Source: Sabellastarte sp. h YS-2021 (Eukaryota > Annelida > Polychaeta > Sabellida > Sabellidae). Taken from it: a stretch of 64,000 bases of DNA. Position numbers and translations under genes: made by a program. Where the stretch lies: the NCBI GenBank assembly GCA_964017235.1, contig OZ024932.1, positions 82,091,451 through 82,155,450 on the forward strand. Reading direction: 5' to 3'. Of this stretch, positions 6,181 through 54,810 are shown one piece after another. The notes under the pieces were generated by a model, which was given only the letters and a program-made list of their open reading frames with translations, ran no database searches and had not been told where the DNA came from. Each line of letters opens with the position of its first letter. Position 1 is the stretch's first letter.

Positions 6181-6621
6181 ACGAAAATGAAAAATTGTGA
6201 ATATCTTGGAAAAGTTATTTCTTCTGCTTTAATGCTTGGTGGGAGATACACACCGCGGCAGTGGTCTTGACAAAAGTTTTTGTCTCCCCAAAAATGGTGG
6301 CCATTTTGAATTTTCAAAGTTTTTGCAAAACACAAAAATGCTTATATCTCGAAAACTGTGCTATATGGAGCGAACTCAACAAAATTTTGGACCTGCTGGG
6401 TATCTCTGCAGAGTAGCCATGCCAATTTTCAAAATATTTTTGTCTCGCCAAATATAGCGGACATTTTCAATTTTTTTATTTTTTGCAAAACACAAAAATG
6501 CTTATATCTTGAAAACCGTGCTAGATAGAGCAGACTGCGCTGACTTTGGTTGCCACAACAGTATAAGGCTAGAAACGAAGCATTTTCTTAATACTTTAGC
6601 ACTCACCTTTATAGCCTTTTC
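6181..6621 (+). repeat. Return of 169-bp-type monomers and H1 3' unique region
   Basis: 6181-6270 is a junction segment that includes GGTGGGAGATAC, resembling the H7 end. From 6280 to about 6530 two degenerate 169-bp monomers (GGCCATTTTGAATTTT, AAAATGCTTATATCT) reappear, followed by a short unique stretch before the 3' inverted repeat. The 132-bp array is therefore bracketed by 169-bp monomers. Confidence 0.8.
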
Positions 6622-44036: not shown

Positions 44037-46073
44037 TGTCTGCCCACCAAACGATTAAAGATAAGCCCAGATCTAGTGTCGTCACTTTTGCTTCGCATTT
44101 GACACACATAATTATTGCCTTACCTGTAGGGAATTTGGCAAGGGTGATGACCCCTGTGTGACTTTTGAAAAACCTTGTGAAATTTGTACTTCTTTTACAG
44201 AAGAACAACTACAAAAAAATTCACAAAGAAAACAATATATTAAGAAGCAAAAGAGGGACACTGCTAGTTCCAAAGACGATGAACTTATTTACCTCACGCC
44301 CACGTCCTCAGCCCCTACCCTTCAGTTCATTGTCTAGCAAAACACTAGCAAAAACTGTCCCACCCACCCCAGGTACTGCCTTACAGCATAAAATAGAATC
44401 AAATATAGAGAAATCCCTGGGTAACACACTTAACATCCATTTACAGCAGTAAATGGGTTCTTTCCAGGCATCAATGTTTAAGAAGCCTTCCAGTCACTCC
44501 GAGAGGAATTGACTTCAAAAAAACAACCAGGGTGGATCAAACCTCGGCTTCAGCTTCTAAGCCTGGACCCTCTACTAGTGCTGTTGTAAATCTGGACCTA
44601 TCCCCTCCGAGACCTAGAACTACCTCACATGTTAAGGAAATGGAAGTGGTCTATGGTCCAGCACTTCCTCCACATCTCGGTTCTGACCTTCATTATGCAT
44701 CGGATCAGAATTCTGATGCATCCGAGGAGCCTCCTAAGAAGGACTCGGTTAGACCTAGAAAAACACTCTCACTCTCACAAAAGGCATGAGGTTGATCCGA
44801 GGTCTGCCTTGGATCAATTCTATGATGAATCCGATGAACCGATGCTGACAAGAGTAGACATAAGGTCAGGTCCAGATACGCATCGTCTTCCTCAAAGGAG
44901 GATCAGTCCTCTGCAATGAGACACAGGTCTTCAAAGCCCTCTGGGGCTCTCTCAGACCAAGACCAACCTCAACATGATCCAGAAGCCCCTTATTATAGTA
45001 GCTCTGTCTGACGTTCCCTCCCAATATGCTGAAGAGGTGGACACCTTCAGCACATTCTTTCCCTCCCTGACCCCAGGGAGTCTATGCCTAGGTTCTCAAC
45101 TTCAGTTATGGGTCAGGATGATGAAAAAGGCCGTCAAGAGCTCAGACCTAGAGGTCCTTCCTCTATGTTACCACTCAGCTCAGTTATCAAAGATGCTTTT
45201 GATAAGTTTGAACATGATTTCCAGGCCACTAATTTACCTGAGGGTAGATACACCAAACCTCCTCCATCCACTATAAAGTGGTACAAGGTGGGACAGCCCT
45301 GTTATGAGAAGAAAATACACGAGTTGAATACAGATTTTGCCAAAATCTGTATTACTCCTAAACCCACTGGGGCTCCTATGGGCAAGGTTCCCTACAAAAT
45401 TCTTAAGGAATTGGAACACCAAGCTAGGCAAAACATTTCCACGCTCAATTTTACTGCTGCCTTTGCCAAGACTTCTTCTTCCTGCAATGCCACTCTTGAG
45501 AAGTGCCAACACAGCCTGAAGGCAACCTTCAAGAGGGTTAAGTCTCAGATCCAGAAAGGTGCCAATCCTGAGAAAGCAGCTAAACGTGGATATGAGCAAG
45601 CCTGTGAGTATTTAGAATTATGGAATAAGACTGTAACAGTTCTTATTCAGCACAGGGCTCTCACATGCCTCAGCAAATCCTTGGCCCATGTTCTCCAGAG
45701 GGAACTCTATTCTATGGGTAACCCCAACTTGGTTAGGCGCGAAGCCGAAATGACCCTTCTGCAACCACAATTAGGGGAAACGAGACGCCAAGAACTCAGG
45801 AACTCGCCCTTTTGCCATTCCTCTTTGTTCAAGTCTCAACTTGTGAAGGAAGGGGAAGACTTCCTCCTAAAAAAAGGCACCTCTAAAGACTCTCAGGGTT
45901 TCGGACCCTATAAGCCCTTTCGTGGTTCCCACAACAAGAAAAGAGGCTCCTACAGAAAATGCCCCTATGGGGGCAACTCATCACAAAGCAGTAACCAATT
46001 GTTTTCCTCAGGCAGGGGGAAACCGAACTTCAGAGGCTCCAGGGGTCATTTTCGACCCCACAACAGGGGATGA
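44037..46073 (+). pseudogene. DIRS gag-like ORF, frameshifted
   Basis: An initial ATG lies at 44037. After a frame change near 44070 the frame reads a Cys/His-rich N-terminus (CRHFCFAFDTHNYC, CEICTSFTEEQ), typical of DIRS ORF1. A low-complexity Pro/Ser region follows in several frames (44250-45080). An intact 329-residue segment from 45084 to 46073 ends in a basic Gly/Arg/Ser tail (SGRGKPNFRGSRGHFRP). DIRS ORF1 products are thought to be the nucleocapsid-like partner of the reverse transcriptase. At least three frame changes break the ORF. Confidence 0.78.
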
Positions 46074-46109
46074 GGGCATGGAAACCCCTCCCCCAATGAC
46101 TCCTTAAAA

Positions 46110-46667
46110 GCCTGCCTCCGTCCACCAGTAGGTTGCCTCCGTTCTTTCAGAAGAAACTGGCAAATGTTCATCCAACATGTTAAACATTATCACCAATGGC
46201 TACGTACTGCCATTCCTCTCAAAACCAAGTCTGGTCAGATTTACTCTGATTCAGTCAGAATACAAGGGTGGAAAATGTAAAATCTCTCGGGTTTTACAGT
46301 CGCCTGTTTCTAGTCCCGAAGCCTCACCAAAGGTGGAGGCCGGTCATAGACCTAAGCAGGCTCAACACTTTTCTACACGTAGAAAAGTTCAAAATGGAAA
46401 CTCCAAAGTCCATCAGGACCTCCCTGATTCCAGGGGAATGGGTATCGTCAATAGACCTATCAGACGCTTACCTTCACATCCCCATCCTTCCAAACTCAAG
46501 GAAATACCTAAGGTTTTGCCACAGGTCACAGGTGTTCCAGTTCACCTCCCTCCTTTTCGGACTAGCCACAGCCCCCCAGGTCTTTACAATGATTGTAAAG
46601 GAAGTGAAGCTAATGGCCCTCTCCAGAGAACTCAGACTTCACCAATACCTGGACGACTGGCTGATCA
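46110..46667 (+). pseudogene. DIRS reverse transcriptase, N-terminal and palm part
   Basis: The sequence reads NGYVLPFLSKPSL in one frame, then from 46268 FYSRLFLVPKPHQRW, WRPVIDLSRLN, motif A SSIDLSDAYLHIPI, motif B FGLATAPQVFT and motif C YLDDWLI. These are the DIRS/Ty3-like palm motifs, with catalytic aspartates present. One frameshift separates the first block from the rest (about 46260-46270). The ORF is cut immediately after motif C by the nested MITEs and continues at 53319. Confidence 0.85.
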
Positions 46668-46781
46668 GGGCCGGGATTCACAAAAGGTCTTAAGCAAAAA
46701 AATGTCATAACTTTAGGAGAAAAGTCTTAACTCTGCAAGAATTTTGTCATAAAGTTAAGACTTTTTTTTTGCTTAGACAAA

Positions 46782-47465
46782 ATGGGATTCACAAAAGGTC
46801 TTAGACAAAAATTTGTCTTAGATTTTGTCATAACTTTAAGACCACTGCTTAATGCTGCTTATAACTCCCATTCACACAAAGCAAGGCTGCAAGGTGACAA
46901 GTTGTTACTTGATGACAAGCTGTACTCCATTAACGATTTCAACAAGCTGCCTGAAGAGTTAAGACCTGAAAACCTCACCACAATCACAAAGAAAAACATG
47001 ACAGCCTTCTTTTCGCGTCACTCCAAGCTATCAAACCACTATCCATGTGAATTTATGCAGGATGGCGTTTTTTATGTGTCTGTTGAACAATGCCTAATGC
47101 ATAAGAAAGCTGCTCTCTTTGATGACTATCACACTGCCACTGCTATCCTGAAATGCAAGGATCCAGCTGACGCAAAAGCCTTAGGGAAAAAGGTGCATAA
47201 CTACAACTCAGATGTCTGGAACAAAAATAGGGACTTGATCATGAAGTCCGCCATAGATGCGAAATTTTCCCAAAATCACTCTCTTGCTGAGTTCCTCAAG
47301 AGTACGGGCAACAACATTTTAATTGAAGCTAATCCTTTTGACCGATACTGGGGTGTAGGTCAATCCCTACAAGATGCTAATATTTGGAAGAAGGACTTGT
47401 GGAACGGTCGTAATAAGCTTGGGACCATACTAGCTGAAATTCGTGCTAAGTTGTCTAGACAGTGA
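46782..47465 (+). CDS. NADAR (YbiA-like) domain protein, ORF1 of the LINE, 5'-truncated
   Basis: The 227-codon frame starts in flanking MITE sequence; true LINE sequence begins at about residue 23. Residues 33-72 form a linker (LQGDKLLLDDKLYSINDF, KLPEELRPENL). Residues 73-225 are a NADAR/YbiA fold: FFSRHSKLSNHYPCEF, YVSVEQCLMHKKAALF (Glu102), Trp146, AKFSQNHSLAEFL, EANPFDRYWGVG (Asp188, Trp190), NGRNKLGTILAEIR. These are the conserved signature positions of the family, whose bacterial members are N-glycosidases acting on damaged riboflavin intermediates, with proposed NAD/ADP-ribose-linked roles. All appear intact. The role in a retrotransposon is unknown. The N-terminal portion of ORF1 is missing. 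It ends at a TGA, 1.34 kb before ORF2. Confidence 0.85.
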   Translation: MGFTKGLRQKFVLDFVITLRPLLNAAYNSHSHKARLQGDKLLLDDKLYSINDFNKLPEELRPENLTTITKKNMTAFFSRHSKLSNHYPCEFMQDGVFYVSVEQCLMHKKAALFDDYHTATAILKCKDPADAKALGKKVHNYNSDVWNKNRDLIMKSAIDAKFSQNHSLAEFLKSTGNNILIEANPFDRYWGVGQSLQDANIWKKDLWNGRNKLGTILAEIRAKLSRQ

Positions 47466-48808
47466 TTCTGTATGAAAAACTTGAAATAGTTACTCTGTCT
47501 TTTTAAAAAACTTTAAACTAAATGTTAATCGTATTGCAAAAACAGCCTGACCATATCGAAAAAATAAGATGTTTATATGTTATTTGAACCTGTTTTTTAA
47601 CTGCTATTAAAAACTACCTATATTTGTTAAAGATAATGTAAGTCAGATTACTTTTACATACAAAAACTATGTCCAAATAGTTTAATAATCAAAACTGTCT
47701 ATAAAACAGTGTTCTAATGTATTTAAAGTTGTTTCAAACTACCTTTTTGATCATGTTTTGTTAACATAATTAAAAACTGCTTTGATTATAATTATACGCA
47801 ATACTGACTAATACTTAAAAGATTCATTTTATAAGATATGTTTCAAGTTAATTACATTTATTCAACAAGAACCTTATTGGTAGATACATCAATTTGTGCA
47901 GATCACTCTCATTTTATTTAAAAGGATTTTTTTTTTTTTTTTTTTTTTTCTGAACTGTTTCTAATTGTAAATTGGCTGAAGGCTAACACTCTAAACTAAT
48001 ACTGATAATGTTTTGTAATTAAAACATCCTAACCTACTAAAGAAAATTATTGATCATGTTTTGTTAACTTTGATTATGATTATACGCAAATACTGAATAT
48101 CAATTAAAAGACTAATTTTATGTGATATGTTTGAATTTGATTACATTTATTCAACAAGTATCTTATTTGTACTTACATCATTTTGTGCAGATCACTCTCA
48201 TCTTATTTAAAATTATTGAAAATTGGTGTTTTTTGTTCTACGGTTCCTAATTGTAAATTGGCTGAAGGCTAACTTTCTAAAACAAATACTGATGTTATTG
48301 TAATTAAAAGACCATTTTTAATAGTTTTTCCTTATATGTATTTTTTTTTTTTTTTTTTTACAAAATAGAAACTGCTTATCATTATGATTATACATAAATA
48401 CAGAATATTAATTAGAAGACTTATTTTAATAGTCCTTTTCCGTATATGTATTTTTATTCTATCTAAGTTTGTTATTTTCAAAATTATTCTTTGATTTAAT
48501 GATACACCTACCCAGAAATCCATCATAGAGTTTTAACATTAATGCCTAATATATTTTGGATATTACAAAATCCTGCAGTGGAGTTTCCCTTCCCCATTTG
48601 ACCATATGCTTGTTCTGTATGTCATATTGTATATAAACATTGTACATATGTTTTTCCATGTAAATGCCAGGTATTCAGTTTTTATAAATGTCAACGTTCA
48701 TGATAGAGTCCTCTATAAAAATTACAGCAAGTGTTGCAGTGAATTATATTTAAATCTTTATAAGGAAGTGCACATTTTAAGTTTATTTTTTGAGTCTAAA
48801 AATATGTT
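47466..48808 (+). repeat. LINE inter-ORF spacer with degenerate tandem units
   Basis: AT-rich sequence (with T-runs at about 47928-47950 and 48341-48360) in which a unit of about 290 bp recurs. GATTATACGCAA(A)TACTGA occurs at about 47797 and 48078, GATTATACATAAATACAGA at 48385, and CATTTATTCAACAAG plus TTGTGCAGATCACTCTCAT occur twice. No ORF. Unusually long for a LINE inter-ORF region. Confidence 0.7.
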
Positions 48809-49564
48809 ATGGCTAACAACTCTGAAACATTGAATATCTTTAGCCTAAATGCAAGAGACTTGGGAGATAAAAAGAAAAGACAGGCTGTTTTCAATTGGTT
48901 AAATGACAAAGGTCCTGGTATATTTCTTATTCAGGAAGCCCACTCATGTCCTGAAAAGGAAAACGAATGGCGTTCTATGTGGAATGGTGTTATAAAATTT
49001 TCTCATGGCACTTCAAACAGCAGGGGACTTGCAGTTTTGATTTCCAGTGGCTTTGATATTAATATCACAAAAACCGTTACCGATAATGATGGAAGGTTTT
49101 TAATCCTTACTTGCACTGTTTCAGATTTAAATCTTACATTTGTAAATATTTATGCACCTACCATTGATAAGAGAAGTGAACAAGTGGCTTTTGCCAACTC
49201 TATCTGTGAAACATTAAGTAACTACAAAGAAGAAAATATTATCTTAGGCGGTGATTTAAATATCAATCTTGACACCTATGCCACAGATGGACTGTATAGC
49301 AAAAACCCAGGCTATAGGAAAGCCTTATTATCGTTAATGGATTCACATGATCTTGTTGATATCTGGAGAATTCAGCACCCAGATATTCTGCGTTACACAC
49401 GTCGAGAAAAGACTAAATCTGGTTTGAAGCAGTCCCGATTAGATTACTTTCTCATCCCATGTAATATGGGTTATATCACAACCCACACTGATATCAAGCC
49501 TAGTATTAAATCTGACCATAGTCTTCTTCATATACGTTTAGCTCTTTTAGGTCAACAAAGATGA
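48809..49564 (+). CDS. LINE ORF2 part 1: APE-type endonuclease
   Basis: This 251-residue frame starts at MANNSETLNIFSLNAR. Endonuclease landmarks are Asn14, Glu43 (IQEAHS), SRGLAVLI, Tyr115 (NIYAPT), Asp149/Asn151 (GGDLNI), SRLDYFLIP and Ser-Asp-His 235-237 (KSDHSLLHI), so all catalytic positions of the apurinic-endonuclease-like LINE nuclease appear present. It nicks target DNA to prime reverse transcription. The frame ends at TGA 49562-49564. The same frame continues without shift into the reverse transcriptase, so this is a point nonsense mutation in one ORF2 rather than a true gene end. Confidence 0.88.
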   Translation: MANNSETLNIFSLNARDLGDKKKRQAVFNWLNDKGPGIFLIQEAHSCPEKENEWRSMWNGVIKFSHGTSNSRGLAVLISSGFDINITKTVTDNDGRFLILTCTVSDLNLTFVNIYAPTIDKRSEQVAFANSICETLSNYKEENIILGGDLNINLDTYATDGLYSKNPGYRKALLSLMDSHDLVDIWRIQHPDILRYTRREKTKSGLKQSRLDYFLIPCNMGYITTHTDIKPSIKSDHSLLHIRLALLGQQR

Positions 49565-49633
49565 GGAAAAGGATTTTGGAAGTTAAATGTAAAACTACTA
49601 TCGGATAAAAAATACATAGAGCTTATTAAAAAT

Positions 49634-52591
49634 GTGATAAAAGACTCGATTTCTGATGCTAAAAATCTTACACAAGACTCTCTAATTTGGGATTTCATAA
49701 AATGTAGAATACGATCTGAGAGTATATCTTATTCCATAGCCAAAAGAAAAATGGAGAGGCAAGAGATTGAATCATTAACTAAACACTTAAGTGAATTAGA
49801 AGAAATAATATCTACCTCACCTACTACAGAATCCTTGGATGAGTATAGCCTTATTAAAACACAGCTAAATGGTCACTATGAGGAATTAGCAAAAGGTTCT
49901 ATAATCAGATCACGCTGTCAACAAATTCATGAATCGGAAAAGCCAACCCAATACTTTTTCAACTTAGAAAAGGCCAATTACAACATTAAGCATATTAGGT
50001 CCTTAAAACATAATGATGAATACATTTCTGATCCTCAAAAAATTTTAGATCTACAGAAAAGGTATTTTTCAAAAATCTATACTGAAACAATTCATGACAG
50101 TGAAAAACTGCAATCTGAAACTAACTTTTATTTAAATAAAATTAACATTCCATCTATTTCAGAGGACAGTAAGTTTTCTTGTGACCTTCCCATTTCTTTG
50201 GAAGAAGTAAAGACAGCAGTCCAAAGTATGGCCAATAACAAATCTCCTGGCCCGGATGGCATTCCTACTGAGTTTTACAAAACCTTCTGGCCTGACATTG
50301 GCGAGTCAGTTTATAGAAGTTTTACACTTGCTTACGAGCTAGGTAAATTATGTGGTAGTCAAAAACAGGGTGTAATCACCCTTATACCGAAAAAAGACAA
50401 AGATTTAACAGATTTGAAGTCATGGCGCCCACTTTCTATCTTGAACACGGACTACAAAATTATTGCAAAAGTATTAAGTACCAGGCTAAAATCTGTTTTA
50501 AAGGAAATTATAAACCCAGATCAGGTAGGCTACATGAAAGAGAGACTTTGTGGGGAGAATACTAGACTTATTTCAGATGTGATAGAATATTGTACAATTA
50601 AAAATCTTCCAAGCATAATCTTATTGGCGGACTTCGAAAAAGCTTTCGATTCAGTAAAATGGTCTTTTTTGACACAGATCTTGGGCTTTTATGGCTTTGG
50701 ACAAAACTTTAGAAAGTGGATCTCTATTTTGTATAAAGACTCTGAGAGTTGTGTGACAAACAATGGGTATTTGTCTTCATTCTTTAAACTGTCAAAAGGC
50801 ATCAGACAAGGTTGCCCAATAAGCGCACTGCTATTTTTGTTAATAGCTGAAATTGTAGCCATTGTTTTAAGAAGCTCCGAAAGGATACATGGCATAAATG
50901 TCAATGGGAAAAATATAAAATTCTGTCAATTAGCTGATGATTTAACATTGTTTTTATCCAATACCCCTTCTGTCTTAAGTGCAATAGAAATTTTTGAAGA
51001 ATTCTACAGATATGCTGGCTTAAAGTTAAATAAATCAAAAACTATTGCTTTTCTTTTAAAAACTGATCAGGAAAAGGTCTATCAAGATGACAACATTGGT
51101 ATTCAATGGACATCAAAACCATTCAAAACTTTAGGTGCATGGTTTTCCCCCGACATTGGTGAGTCCTCGCAGCTAAATATACAAGGTAAAATGATAACAA
51201 TTAAAAAAATTTTAAATTCCTGGTCTGCTAGATGCCTTACCTTAAAAGGTAAGATTACTGTTATAAAGTCTCTGGTAATCCCACATATTCTGCAGCTTGC
51301 TTCTATTGTAACTTTTAGCCACAATCTGATATCGGATATAGATAAAATACTGTTTGAATTCATTTGGAAAAAAAAACACCTAGTTTCAAAAAATACTTTA
51401 CAGCTGTCTTACGACCTAGGAGGTTTAAAAATGGTATCTATCAACCACATTGTAGAAACAGCAAAAATCATGTGGGTTAAAAGGTTTTTCAGTGAAATAA
51501 ATGCAAGTTGGAAAATCTTGGCATCAGAGCTGATGGGACTTGGAAAACATGTCTTGTTGAAAAAACAGTCTTTCAATAGTATCAAAAATAATGTGAAGAC
51601 TATCTTCTACTATGATCTATTACGTATTTGGTTTCAATTTCTGATGAAAAATTTAAAAAATGTAGATAACGTGCTTCATGAGCCAATTTTTAATAATCCC
51701 CATTTCTTGGTGGGAAATCATCCATTATCATCTCAGAATGTGAAAAATCCAGTGTTAAAGTGTTTCACTGTCCAGGACATTTGGGACAGTGATCATGATA
51801 CTTTCAGATCTAGAAATTATATTGAAAATTTTTATAACATTAGTTTGCCATATATGTTATACAATCAGGTTGTTAGATCAGTGTCATCTGTAATGAAGTT
51901 GATTAACAAATGTGGTAACAACATTGCCCTGGAAAGATGCTGTAATATTCCTGATAAGTGTCTGTCTAACATAAGCCAAATAAAAAGTTCAGAGGTTTAT
52001 TCATATTTCTTAGCACTTGAGTATAAGACACCAAAGAGTCAGGAAAAATGGATTGAAAACTACCCATTTCTTGAAAGTTTGGACTGGAAACCAGTGTATT
52101 TACTTCCAAATTTAATCCTAAATGATGCTTACCTGATCACCTTTCAATATAAAATACTACATAGAGTTTTTGCCTGCAATTATAACCTCTTTAAGTGGAA
52201 TATTAAAAATTCACCTCTCTGTGACATCTGTCAAAAAATAGACAATCTTGAACATTATTTCTACTATTGCATAGACACAAATGTATTCTGGGTTCAAGTA
52301 AAGAGCTGGCTGAACCAGTTGTTATCTATTGAATTGAGCTTGACTGTCTTGGAGATATTTTTCGGAGTCTTAAAGTTGGACCCAAAAGACTGGTATACAG
52401 TTAACTTTGTTATACTAATAGGGAAAAAATTTATATCAAAGTGCAAAAAAAATAACAAAGAATTATTTTTTAACAATTTTCTGGAGTACCTAAATTGGAT
52501 GTTAAGTTTAGAAGAGGGGGTCTACATCAGGCAGGGAAAATCAACAGCATTCTCTGCAAGATATAGCCTCTTGCAAGCACATTTTTTCTAA
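49634..52591 (+). CDS. LINE ORF2 part 2: reverse transcriptase with C-terminal Cys/His motif
   Basis: 985 residues are open, in the same frame as the endonuclease. Motifs: NNKSPGPDGIPTEFYK (201-216), WRPLSILNTDYKI, motif A LADFEKAFDSV (Asp333), motif B KGIRQGCPISALLF (388-401), motif C LADD (433-436; most LINEs have YADD or FADD), LNKSKTIAF and TLGAWFSP. A C-terminal Cys-x2-Cys...His-x4-Cys (CDICQKIDNLEHYFYYC, about residues 864-880) matches the zinc-knuckle found at the end of L1/Tx1-type ORF2 proteins. It catalyses target-primed reverse transcription. 3' UTR of about 190 bp, then poly(A). Confidence 0.9.
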   Translation: MIKDSISDAKNLTQDSLIWDFIKCRIRSESISYSIAKRKMERQEIESLTKHLSELEEIISTSPTTESLDEYSLIKTQLNGHYEELAKGSIIRSRCQQIHESEKPTQYFFNLEKANYNIKHIRSLKHNDEYISDPQKILDLQKRYFSKIYTETIHDSEKLQSETNFYLNKINIPSISEDSKFSCDLPISLEEVKTAVQSMANNKSPGPDGIPTEFYKTFWPDIGESVYRSFTLAYELGKLCGSQKQGVITLIPKKDKDLTDLKSWRPLSILNTDYKIIAKVLSTRLKSVLKEIINPDQVGYMKERLCGENTRLISDVIEYCTIKNLPSIILLADFEKAFDSVKWSFLTQILGFYGFGQNFRKWISILYKDSESCVTNNGYLSSFFKLSKGIRQGCPISALLFLLIAEIVAIVLRSSERIHGINVNGKNIKFCQLADDLTLFLSNTPSVLSAIEIFEEFYRYAGLKLNKSKTIAFLLKTDQEKVYQDDNIGIQWTSKPFKTLGAWFSPDIGESSQLNIQGKMITIKKILNSWSARCLTLKGKITVIKSLVIPHILQLASIVTFSHNLISDIDKILFEFIWKKKHLVSKNTLQLSYDLGGLKMVSINHIVETAKIMWVKRFFSEINASWKILASELMGLGKHVLLKKQSFNSIKNNVKTIFYYDLLRIWFQFLMKNLKNVDNVLHEPIFNNPHFLVGNHPLSSQNVKNPVLKCFTVQDIWDSDHDTFRSRNYIENFYNISLPYMLYNQVVRSVSSVMKLINKCGNNIALERCCNIPDKCLSNISQIKSSEVYSYFLALEYKTPKSQEKWIENYPFLESLDWKPVYLLPNLILNDAYLITFQYKILHRVFACNYNLFKWNIKNSPLCDICQKIDNLEHYFYYCIDTNVFWVQVKSWLNQLLSIELSLTVLEIFFGVLKLDPKDWYTVNFVILIGKKFISKCKKNNKELFFNNFLEYLNWMLSLEEGVYIRQGKSTAFSARYSLLQAHFF

Positions 52592-53318
52592 TTTTCTAAT
52601 TTATCCATATAATGAGTGAATATGTATGTGTATCTTCCTGTACAATTTATTTTCTCTTTTTGTTCTAATTATTGTCTGCTCACCTTTTGTATCTTTTTGA
52701 ATATCTTTTTAGATCTATTGTACATCTTGTGTCATGCTGTTTTTCTGGCAATAAAAACAAATAAAAAAAAAAAAAAAAAAAAAAAGACCACTGCAGGGCA
52801 GACTTAAGACAATTTTAAAATATTCCATTGCATGTATTTACATTTTACCCTTTGTTATGCCAACAAAATATATACTATGGGGATCTATACTTCCTATAAA
52901 AGTAATTTCTCTGGATTGTAATAAAAATTTACATCATTTAATTACCTCTAAATTTCCATATTTTACCTTCTTGTAGTAAAAATATTGTCATAAAAATGGC
53001 TGACTCACAACAAAACACAAATACTACTATTTTTACATAATTTTACAAAGAAAAAGTAACAAATCTGTTTTATAATTTTAAAGAGCATGTTTGGTGTATT
53101 TATTGATGAAAAATATTTTTGTTTTACTAAGATTAGTTCATTTGAATTCAAACTAGTTAAGACTTTTTGCACAAATTTTGTCTCAGCTAAGATTTTGCTA
53201 AGCACTTTTTGTGAATCCCAATTTAAGAGAAATCTTAGCGAAGACAAAAGTCATAACTTTAAGATTTGTCTAAGCAAAAAAATTGCCTAAACTTAAGACC
53301 TTTTGTGAATCCCAGTCC

Positions 53319-54120
53319 AGGTCCCAGTCTCAGGAGAAAGCTCAAGTGAACACTCAGGCAGTGGTAGACCTAACCCAGTCCTTGGGTTGGATAATAAATC
53401 AGGAAAAATCAGAACTGAAACCTACTCAGGTGTTTTTGTTTGTGGGTTACGAATACCATCAAGATTCAGCCCTTGTAAAATCCACTCAAGAGATCCAGGC
53501 TCAAACTTCAGGATTTGATCCAAAGACTCAAGTCCAAACATGTTTTAACTGCAAGATGTTTGATGTCACTAATTGGGTTGCTTGCCTCAACGGAGAAATT
53601 GTCCCGGAGGGACGCCTTCACATGAGGCCCTTTCAGTTTCATCTCAAGGAGCACTAGAGATATCCTCAGTTGCTGGACAGCGTCCTTCCTTGGACAGAAG
53701 CCATTTCAGCACACCTAGACTGGTGGCAAAATCCCTCAAATGTGATGAGAGGTGCAGACCTTCATTCCAAAGACCACAGTATCCAACTCTTTACAGACGC
53801 CTCAAATGAAGGTTGGGGCGCTCACTTAGATCAAAGTTCTACAGAGGGTCTGTGGTCAGACCGTGAAAAAAGGCTACACATAAACATTCTAGAATTAAAG
53901 GCGGTCTCCCTGGCCCTTCAAAGCTTCAAGGACCAGTGCCAGAGCCAAACAATGCTAGTTGCAACGGACAACTCAACAGTGGTAGCCTACATAAACAAAC
54001 AAGGAGGAACTCACTCAGCAGAGATGTGTGCTCTCCTGTGGAAGATCATGATCTTGCCATCACTATCACATAACATTGAAAGCCAGACACATTCCAGGGT
54101 GTCTGAATGTGATGGCCGAC
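53319..54120 (+). pseudogene. DIRS reverse transcriptase C-terminus and RNase H
   Basis: It resumes in frame with the palm (SQSQEKAQVNTQAVVDLTQ, SLGWIINQEKSELKPTQ, FLFVGYEY). From 53690 it is RNase H: LFTDASNEGWGAHL, INILELKAVSLAL, MLVATDNSTVVAYINKQGG, carrying the Asp, Glu and Asp metal ligands. A region near 53480-53670 is out of frame. A frameshift near 54060-54080 moves the final block (ARHIPGCLNVMADLLSR) to another frame. Confidence 0.83.
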
Positions 54121-54810
54121 CTTCTGTCCAGGTCGAACCAAGTGCAGTCAACAGAATGGTCACTGCATCCACAGGTGTTCAAACAGATCTGTCAAAAGTG
54201 GTTCACTCCTCATGTAGATCTATTTGCCACTCATCTGAACCACAAACGTCCACTGTACGTATCTCCTGTCCAAGACCCAAAGGCTTGGGACATAGATGCT
54301 CTGAACATAAACTGGATGGGTCTCACTGCCTATGCTTACCCTCCAACGACTCTCCTTCACAGGGTGATCCAAAAAATCAGGCAATGCCATTGCCTGATTA
54401 TTGTAATAGCCCCAGGCTGGCCAGGGATGCCCTGGTTTTGGGACCTAGTGCAGCTCTCAAAAGAGATCCCTCTACAACTTCCAGTGTCAACGACTCTTCT
54501 CAAACAATCCCACAATTATGTGTTCCACAGCAATCCACAACATCTCAACCTCCACGCCAGGTGTCTAGGAGTGGACAGCTCCAAGATCAAGGCTTCTGTG
54601 GAGGTGGCAGAGAGAATTGCTGCCCCTCAGATGTCATCAACAAGGACCATCTACAAGTCAAAGTGGGCCCTATTTGAGAAATGGTGCAGAGAAAATTTGG
54701 TGGATTTCTCCACTCCATCTGTGAAACAAGTCTCAGACTTTTTCATGTACCTGTACCAAGACCAAACAGGCGCCCCTCACCATCGTTGTTTACAGGATGG
54801 GCATTGTTGA
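54076..54810 (+). pseudogene. DIRS post-RNase H region and start of recombinase
   Basis: An open 244-residue frame contains HIPGCLNVMADLLSR (RNase H end), then HVDLFATHLNHKRPLYVSP, DPKAWDIDALNINWMG, TAYAYPPTTLL and IAPGWPGMPWFWDLVQL, a conserved block found after RNase H in DIRS-group elements. From about 54640 the N-terminal core-binding part of a tyrosine recombinase begins (IYKSKWALFEKWC, VKQVSDFFMYLY). It breaks at about 54780. Confidence 0.78.

What the first reader, a model, noticed from the sequence alone, without database searches (positions are those of the whole stretch)
46849..52783. A LINE retrotransposon whose ORF1 is a NADAR (NAD/ADP-ribose-related) domain protein
A single 11-bp target duplication (AAGACCACTGC) and poly(A) tail enclose both a NADAR/YbiA-like ORF and an endonuclease/reverse-transcriptase ORF, so the NADAR protein travelled as part of the element. 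Its signature residues (VEQ Glu102, Trp146, DRYWGVG, NGRNKLG) are kept. NADAR enzymes are known as N-glycosidases and are predicted to act on NAD/ADP-ribose-type substrates. In a mobile element this could counter ADP-ribosylation-based host defence, modify nucleotides, or serve as an RNP-associated module. The domain identification is from the sequence; the function in the LINE is inference. I cannot tell whether this combination is already described.
Basis: partly seen in the sequence, partly recalled or inferred. Interest (0 to 1): 0.88.

Follow-up and report, generated by a model that had tools for sequence, protein, structure and literature searches.

The report
LINE retrotransposon with NADAR-fused ORF1
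A jumping gene in what is probably a mollusc genome carries, fused to its RNA-coating protein, an intact-looking enzyme domain of a kind known to strip ADP-ribose off guanine, a modification that clams are known to make on DNA, which suggests a testable defence and counter-defence between host and transposon.

Summary
Window 46849-52783 is a LINE copy with an 11-bp target duplication, a poly(A) tail, a NADAR domain (Pfam 1.2e-40) and an APE-RT ORF2. Two corrections. The copy is 5'-truncated: ORF1 lacks its first ~222 codons, the ATG at 46782 is flanking DNA, and a TGA splits ORF2. In a full-length sibling NADAR is the C-terminal part of a 426-aa protein whose first part is an L1-type ORF1p (coiled coil, RRM, CTD), by sequence and by model. 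The family is young: 11 copies, this one included, match its RT piece at 100% (rounded) over 1008 aa. Other families in the genome share the ORF1, also in front of a very different 2A-APE-RT (CR1-like) ORF2, so ORF1 seems to have been exchanged between LINE lineages. Catalytic Glu and Lys are kept in 23 of 23 ORF1s read, the second Glu in 22, under purifying selection. NADAR in oyster Tx1 ORF1s is already in print in one sentence; the fusion anatomy, the second lineage and the selection were not found in print. Most likely it removes ADP-ribose from guanines of LINE RNA or cDNA; that function is inferred.

The parts
46849..52783 (+). LINE (L1/Tx1-like APE-type non-LTR retrotransposon), 5'-truncated copy with poly(A) tail
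46838..46848 (+). left copy of the 11-bp target site duplication AAGACCACTGC
52784..52794 (+). right copy of the target site duplication
46851..47465 (+). ORF1, last 204 codons plus stop (end of the L1-type CTD, linker, NADAR); start codon and coiled coil-RRM lost by truncation
   Evidence: alignment to L037 (426 aa)
47016..47453 (+). NADAR domain (YbiA subfamily); equivalents of E43, K50 and E125 of 8bau kept
47466..48808 (+). inter-ORF spacer with internal direct repeats (47800-47948 / 48089-48237, 81%)
48809..52591 (+). ORF2 (APE-RT-zinc knuckle), split by a TGA at 49562-49564; most siblings listed have a 1263-aa open frame there
48827..49519 (+). APE endonuclease domain
   Evidence: PF03372 2e-7
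50384..51139 (+). reverse transcriptase domain
   Evidence: PF00078 3.1e-35
52142..52291 (+). zinc-knuckle-like C-terminal motif (zf-RVT, below Pfam's cut-off)
   Evidence: PF13966 0.0017
52592..52783 (+). 3' end with poly(A)

Best explanation
What it is: a young LINE family whose ORF1 protein is an L1-type RNA-coating protein (coiled coil, RRM, CTD) with a C-terminal NADAR N-glycosidase domain; the window holds a dead, 5'-truncated copy. How it most likely works: the coiled coil makes a multimer, RRM and CTD coat the element's RNA, and the fused NADAR sits on that ribonucleoprotein and on the cDNA made at the target. There it hydrolyses ADP-ribose off guanine bases and so keeps template and first strand readable when the host (or a toxin) ADP-ribosylates foreign nucleic acid. 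Clams are known to have such a writer, CARP-1, which modifies guanine N2, the linkage that tested NADARs reverse. Shown: the anatomy, the linkage, many families, conserved catalytic residues, purifying selection. Inferred: multimer and RNA binding (from homology), catalysis, the substrate, the benefit. My split: anatomy 0.97, catalytically active enzyme 0.85, nucleic-acid guanine-ADP-ribose as main substrate 0.45, CARP-1-like enzyme as the opponent 0.25.
For: Profile of 15 ORF1s against PDB sequences: 8bau NADAR 3.4e-36 at positions 284-401, human L1 ORF1p 2ykp 6e-12 at 79-238. Model of the L037 ORF1: pLDDT 85, 90-97 in the ten-residue blocks of 281-420, pTM 0.60; Foldseek top hits 8bau 2.8e-12 and 2yko 2.4e-7. 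Equivalents of 8bau E43, K50, E125: E in 23/23, K in 23/23, E in 22/23 ORF1s (near-copies included). In 16 non-redundant full ORF1s 36 columns are invariant, 29 of them in NADAR (168 of 426 positions), among them E301, K308, W345, E381, D386, W389. NADAR dN/dS (NG86) 0.088, 0.070, 0.132 in three pairs, Fisher p 1e-25, 2e-28, 7e-5. Linkage: 8 of 11 RT copies have a listed NADAR upstream, seven at 1.8-2.1 kb and one at 7.9 kb. NADARs reverse guanine-N2 ADP-ribosylation and CARP-1 makes it (PMC11543638, passages); six edible clams show the activity (PMC11209040, passages); an immune role of CARP-1 is proposed (PMC8053099, passages). In the nematode protein SNA-3, which works with RNA, changing NADAR catalytic residues inactivates it (PMC9303266, passages): an animal NADAR tied to an RNP.
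Against: No activity was measured. No CARP-1-like gene was sought in this genome. The authors of PMC11543638 state that reversal of CARP-1 marks by NADAR is not tested. YbiA acts on riboflavin intermediates, and all 15 ORF1s of A1 match TIGR02464, riboflavin-intermediate N-glycosidase, so another substrate is possible. One of 23 copies (L026) has Lys at the second catalytic Glu. By mean majority-residue fraction NADAR (0.61) is hardly above the CTD (0.59). Young pairs have few changes (w 0 to 0.51), and dS is near or past saturation in two of the three pairs quoted and in the other divergent pairs.
Confidence: 0.45

Rival explanations
1. NADAR acts on small ADP-ribose or NAD-derived molecules (immune signals, by-products of RNA repair, NAD-type RNA caps) or in RNA processing, not on guanine-ADP-ribose in the element's nucleic acid.
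For: PMC9503650 (passages) proposes soluble ADP-ribose derivatives or RNA repair for many viral NADARs; PMC12477816 (passages) suggests RNA processing for the Ectocarpus and oyster elements; SNA-3 of nematodes, with three NADAR domains, is needed for trans-splicing (PMC9303266, passages); all 15 ORF1s of A1 match the riboflavin N-glycosidase model TIGR02464.
Against: NADAR is fused to the RNA-coating protein rather than free, which puts it on nucleic acid; PMC9503650 prefers macromolecular targets for NADARs of eukaryotic RNA viruses.
Confidence: 0.27
2. NADAR removes ADP-ribose from proteins of the RNP (counter-PARP), as viral macrodomains do.
For: NADAR and macrodomains are largely mutually exclusive in animal RNA viruses, suggesting similar targets (PMC9503650, passages).
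Against: Characterised NADARs reverse guanine base ADP-ribosylation (passages); the passages I read report no protein activity.
Confidence: 0.13
3. NADAR is only a binding module of the RNP, catalysis lost or irrelevant.
For: Other ORF1 types carry non-enzymatic modules such as PHD fingers (PMC4120745, passages).
Against: 29 of 36 invariant columns of ORF1 lie in NADAR, the catalytic ones among them.
Confidence: 0.1
4. NADAR is a host or viral sequence picked up by one copy, not part of the element.
For: None found.
Against: The same order of ORF1, spacer and ORF2 in independent insertions with near-constant spacing within families, and purifying selection.
Confidence: 0.02

Closest known systems
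Tx1 LINEs of Crassostrea gigas with NADAR-like ORF1 (one sentence in PMC12477816, Genome Biol 2025)
   Same: Tx1/L1-like LINE of a mollusc, NADAR of the YbiA family in ORF1
   Different: In the passages read it is only noted from Repbase matches; here the anatomy (C-terminal to an L1-type ORF1p), selection, a second LINE lineage and a young family are shown.
[quoted passage not shown]
   Same: a retrotransposon carrying NADAR
   Different: LTR element, other position; whether the acquisition was independent was not tested here
Human LINE-1 ORF1p (2yko, 2ykp; type II ORF1)
   Same: coiled coil, RRM, CTD
   Different: no NADAR
CR1/L2 elements with esterase ORF1 (PMC4120745, passages)
   Same: a LINE ORF1 with an added enzyme domain and a record of ORF1 transfer between lineages
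   Different: other enzyme, vertebrate subgroups
Phytophthora nicotianae NADAR (8BAU) and E. coli YbiA (2B3W)
   Same: fold and catalytic residues
   Different: not described as part of a retrotransposon in the passages read
NADARs of phages, giant viruses and RNA viruses
   Same: mobile genomes that carry NADAR (PMC9503650)
   Different: in the 48 IMG/VR loci only the NADAR part of ORF1 matched; LINE NADARs group apart (support 88)
SNA-3 of nematodes (PMC9303266, passages)
   Same: animal NADAR protein acting with RNA
   Different: three NADAR domains, host gene, no retrotransposon; no sequence compared

Membership tests
NADAR, YbiA subfamily | domain match | tested here: met
   PF08719 1.2e-40; 15 of 15 members of A1
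NADAR, YbiA subfamily | catalytic Glu and Lys, and Glu (not Asp or His) in the last strand | tested here: met
   E301, K308, E381 of L037; 23/23, 23/23, 22/23; mapping
NADAR, YbiA subfamily | ADP-ribose N-glycosidase activity | not testable with these tools
   bench assay needed
APE-type LINE | APE endonuclease and reverse transcriptase in ORF2, 3' tail, TSD, 5' truncation | tested here: met
L1 superfamily (Tx1-like) | end-to-end ORF2 similarity to L1 ORF2p | tested here: met
   met for relative L028 against 8uw3, 2.9e-87, residues 12-1201; the window's own ORF2 was not run against PDB but groups with the L1-like RTs
L1 superfamily (Tx1-like) | belongs to the Tx1 clade rather than another L1 clade | not tested
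   no Tx1 reference sequences at hand; the name is by analogy with PMC12477816 and recall
Type II (L1-type) ORF1 | coiled coil, RRM, CTD in order | tested here: met
   the Pfam model PF02994 found nothing in this genome nor in the 14 controls, so that search is uninformative
CR1-like lineage (sister set with the same ORF1) | APE-RT ORF2 with 2A motif, RT far from L1 | tested here: inconclusive
   2A motif in 7 loci, APE and RT by HMM in L012; L012 matches L1 ORF2p only at residues 296-736 or less; no CR1 reference used, name recalled

The most novel reading that the evidence does not exclude
In bivalves, LINEs of two superfamilies share by ORF1 exchange a NADAR-armed ORF1p that erases guanine ADP-ribosylation from LINE RNA and cDNA, countering a host guanine-ADP-ribosylating (CARP-1-type) defence against retroelements: a toxin-antitoxin-like arms race inside an animal genome.
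Probability: 0.2. Interest if true: 0.93.

Novelty: new variant of a known kind. Interest (0 to 1): 0.63.

Why it matters
The role of animal NADARs and of the guanine-modifying enzyme of clams is open. A NADAR fused to a nucleic-acid-coating protein, kept under selection in several mobile families, points to nucleic acid as its place of action. It would make the question 'does ADP-ribosylation of nucleic acids restrict retroelements?' directly testable. It also adds an enzyme to the short list of accessory domains of LINE ORF1 and a likely case of ORF1 exchange between distant LINE lineages.

Tried and rejected
Rejected: that the NADAR ORF begins at 46782 (flanking DNA); that the TSD is chance; that NADAR is a one-off capture. 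My first claim that nearly all invariant ORF1 columns lie in NADAR (33 of 34) was biased, because the window row has no N-terminal part; the recount without it gives 28 of 35 (21 rows) and 29 of 36 (16 rows).

Led nowhere: PF02994 search (nothing here or in the 14 controls); prokaryote genome scans (A1 had no usable stretch; the window NADAR gave no relative); L038, read to look for an L1-like family without NADAR, had no ORF1 in its 4.5 kb upstream stretch and seems truncated: inconclusive. One search listed 150 of 156 ORF1 matches; 143 of the 150 reach query residue 215 or more; 110 of these have a listed NADAR within 400 bp behind; 33 are unread, and each NADAR list shows only 150 scored places, so NADAR-less ORF1s are not excluded. 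Upstream NADAR by coordinates: 16 of 36 L1-like RT places (the other 10 of 46 rows were left out as fragments) and 22 of 48 CR1-like ones (10 of 58 rows left out likewise); the rest may be truncated or unlisted. Topology alone does not prove ORF1 exchange between the two superfamilies (RT tree with L015 joined to the CR1-like set not rejected, p-AU 0.46). Rows dropped: domain means left out window and L024 (a frame fused with foreign DNA); one search left out L024, window, L013, L017, L018, L026; my motif filter missed the RTs of L024 and L025; L014 and L023 have none left.
Full report
CHECK OF THE OBSERVATION. The window lies in a 1.79-Gb genome of 647 contigs (window = C6:82091451-82155450). 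The element runs from 46849 to 52783, between two copies of AAGACCACTGC at 46838-46848 and 52784-52794; these are the only two on the + strand, with one more on the - strand near 6268. None of 20000 shuffles of the left flank gave such a match. Sibling L034 (C6:140064152) matches at 99.8% over 3780 bp up to the poly(A) and then differs; sibling L037 (C7) matches from about 46851 and differs before. Domains: NADAR 1.2e-40, APE 2e-7, RT 3.1e-35, a weak zinc knuckle. The insertion sits in a repeat with inverted ends, in an element with RT and RNase H that I call DIRS-like by recall.

CORRECTIONS. The window copy is 5'-truncated. In L037 ORF1 has 426 aa; the window keeps the last 204 codons, with one residue different. 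The open frame upstream, with its ATG at 46782, is flanking DNA. ORF2 is split by one TGA at 49562-49564. The copy is therefore dead, but its family is young: 11 copies, the window included, match its RT piece at 100% (rounded) over all 1008 aa, most in open frames of 1263 aa, and besides the window 7 places match its NADAR part at 100% (rounded), six in a 428-codon frame and one in a longer fused frame.

WHAT ORF1 IS. A profile of 15 ORF1s (A1) finds among PDB sequences the NADAR of Phytophthora (8bau, 3.4e-36, positions 284-401), E. coli YbiA (9.4e-23) and human LINE-1 ORF1p (2ykp 6e-12, 2yko 8.5e-12, positions 79-238). The model of the L037 ORF1 has pLDDT 85 and pTM 0.60: a helix at 44-121, an RRM-like fold at 125-205, then the CTD and NADAR at 266-425; residues 1-38 are not modelled with confidence. 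Foldseek: 8bau 2.8e-12, human ORF1p trimer 2.4e-7, YbiA 3.0e-7. So ORF1 is an L1-type (type II) ORF1p with a C-terminal NADAR.

HOW WIDE IT IS. The NADAR profile gave 2705 first-look candidates in the genome; 150 were scored and all 150 pass Pfam's cut-off. 38 of these 150 have short frames of 167-179 aa and look like a different thing (see noticed in passing). I read 21 loci with long ORF1 frames, chosen for that length. Judged by motifs and by eye (HMMs only for L012 and L028), 19 have APE and RT downstream on the same strand, one (L014) only an APE start before a foreign insertion, one (L023) neither. In 12 of the 19 the ORF2 is L1/Tx1-like; the one tried (L028) matches human L1 ORF2p end to end (2.9e-87). 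In 7 the ORF2 starts with a 2A motif (..NPGP) followed by APE-RT; the one tried (L012) matches L1 ORF2p only within residues 296-736, about 1e-19. I call these CR1-like, a name from recall. By coordinates alone, 8 of the 11 RT copies above have a listed NADAR upstream, seven at 1.8-2.1 kb and one at 7.9 kb, two of the eight as partial matches with stops; of the other three one was read and is 5'-truncated. 16 of 36 L1-like and 22 of 48 CR1-like RT places have a listed NADAR upstream; the 22 spacings are 1745, eleven at 1838-1877, five at 2151-2168, three at 2503-2505, 2739 and 2922, where chance would give 0.0004 per place. 110 of 143 ORF1 matches that reach the CTD end are followed by a listed NADAR; the other 33 are undecided.

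ORF1 EXCHANGE. In the RT tree of 14 rows the CR1-like set stands apart with full support; the window's RT groups with that of L009/L010 (98/100), but its ORF1 (as L037) groups with L019 and L022 (97/93); holding these three together in the RT tree is rejected (p-AU 2e-41). The RT row named L037 there is the window's RT, 100% (rounded) identical to that of the C7 sibling. I chose that group after seeing a first tree, which weakens the p-value's meaning. ORF1-to-RT distance ratios (FastTree, pairs with RT distance over 0.1) are 1.04-2.57 within the L1-like set (42 pairs), 1.03-1.90 within the CR1-like set (19) and 0.28-0.69 between them (70), with no overlap. L015, with an L1-like RT, has an ORF1 that groups with the CR1-like ones (99/96 for the whole ORF1, 91/88 for NADAR alone, 94/90 for the rest); whether inside or beside them is unresolved (69/92). 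Against: the RT tree with L015 joined to the CR1-like set is not rejected (p 0.46), so exchange between superfamilies rests on distances, while exchange within the L1-like set rests on topology. ORF1 transfer among CR1 and L2 lineages is known (PMC4120745, passages). The 16 LINE NADARs tried form one side of a branch against 48 IMG/VR ones, two PDB ones and the short form (SH-aLRT 88, quick tree), in keeping with one acquisition but not proving it.

SELECTION AND CATALYSIS. In 16 non-redundant full ORF1s 36 columns are invariant, 29 of them in NADAR; in 21 rows 28 of 35. Mean majority-residue fraction: coiled coil 0.41, RRM 0.53, CTD 0.59, NADAR 0.61. Equivalents of 8bau E43, K50, E125: 23/23, 23/23, 22/23 (L026 has Lys); of K75 20/23 Lys; of R79 19/23 Lys or Arg; of Y84 21/23 Phe or Tyr; these 23 rows include near-copies and the window. 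NG86 dN/dS of NADAR: L022/L019 0.088, L023/L027 0.070, L009/L014 0.132 (Fisher p 1e-25, 2e-28, 7e-5). Synonymous distance in the first two is near saturation (2.1, 2.3), so those ratios are rough. Young pairs have too few changes (w 0 to 0.51, or undefined), and in the other divergent pairs dS is undefined or saturated. RRM and CTD give similar ratios.

MECHANISM. NADARs of bacteria and of an oomycete hydrolyse ADP-ribose from the amino group of guanine; CARP-1 of the clam Meretrix lamarckii and pierisins make this link; that NADAR erases CARP-1 marks is stated there as untested (PMC11543638, passages). The activity was found in six edible clams (PMC11209040, passages), and a role against DNA viruses and/or in NAD regulation has been proposed (PMC8053099, passages). 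In nematodes SNA-3, with three NADAR domains, works with RNA and is inactivated by changes at catalytic positions (PMC9303266, passages). Fusion to the RNA-coating ORF1p would bring the eraser to LINE RNA and cDNA. I take this as the best reading: substrate at 0.45, CARP-1 as opponent at 0.25. Rivals are small ADP-ribose derivatives or RNA processing, proteins, or a non-catalytic module.

PRIOR ART. PMC12477816 (passages) says that ORF1 proteins of several oyster Tx1 LINE families appear to hold YbiA-family NADAR domains and describes a Gypsy lineage with NADAR in Ectocarpus. Among the papers listed by the searches (one search listed 20 of 104, all 10 that hold 'NADAR domain', of which I saw passages of five) I found no other that joins NADAR with LINEs. 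Two mollusc LINE papers hold no 'NADAR' (PMC10294476, PMC11203168) and no 'YbiA'. The library lacks most subscription journals. Hence 'new variant of a known kind': the combination is in print; the anatomy, the second lineage and the selection were not found.

Noticed in passing
L001-L008, L031-L033 (e.g. C18:8625889, C1:16786015, C8:16717932): 38 of the 150 scored NADAR matches in the genome are short frames of 167-179 aa, near-identical (two variants) in the copies read, with no RT frame seen nearby; in L032 a dUTPase frame (PF00692 5.6e-11) and frames of 490, 151 and 144 aa without a Pfam match follow, so this looks like a multi-copy DNA-virus-like element with its own NADAR. Described only.
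   Followed up: partly
C14:61311159 to C14:61329744: One full-length sibling of the window LINE (NADAR at C14:61317183, RT to C14:61322925) lies between two copies of the short NADAR frame 18 kb apart, possibly inserted in that virus-like element.
   Followed up: no
window 45033-46693 and 53274-54677: An element with RT and RNase H pieces (DIRS-like by recall) is interrupted by a repeat with inverted ends (46673-.. / ..-53317, 'GGGATTCACAAAAGGTCTTA'), which is itself interrupted by the LINE: three nested insertions.
   Followed up: partly
window 47800-48240: The ORF1-ORF2 spacer holds direct repeats about 289 bp apart (81% over 149 nt) and long T runs; the truncated sibling L036 starts at about 48299, just 3' of them.
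   Followed up: no
L024 1556-2938: Another truncated NADAR LINE copy whose frame happens to read on from unrelated flanking coding-like sequence, much as in the window; its NADAR is identical to that of L025.
   Followed up: no
A1 members: All 15 ORF1s of A1 also match NCBIfam NF053876 'NADAR family anti-phage protein', best 2.8e-17; the score shown for L037 (50.9 bits) is far below the curated cut-off of 240.
   Followed up: no
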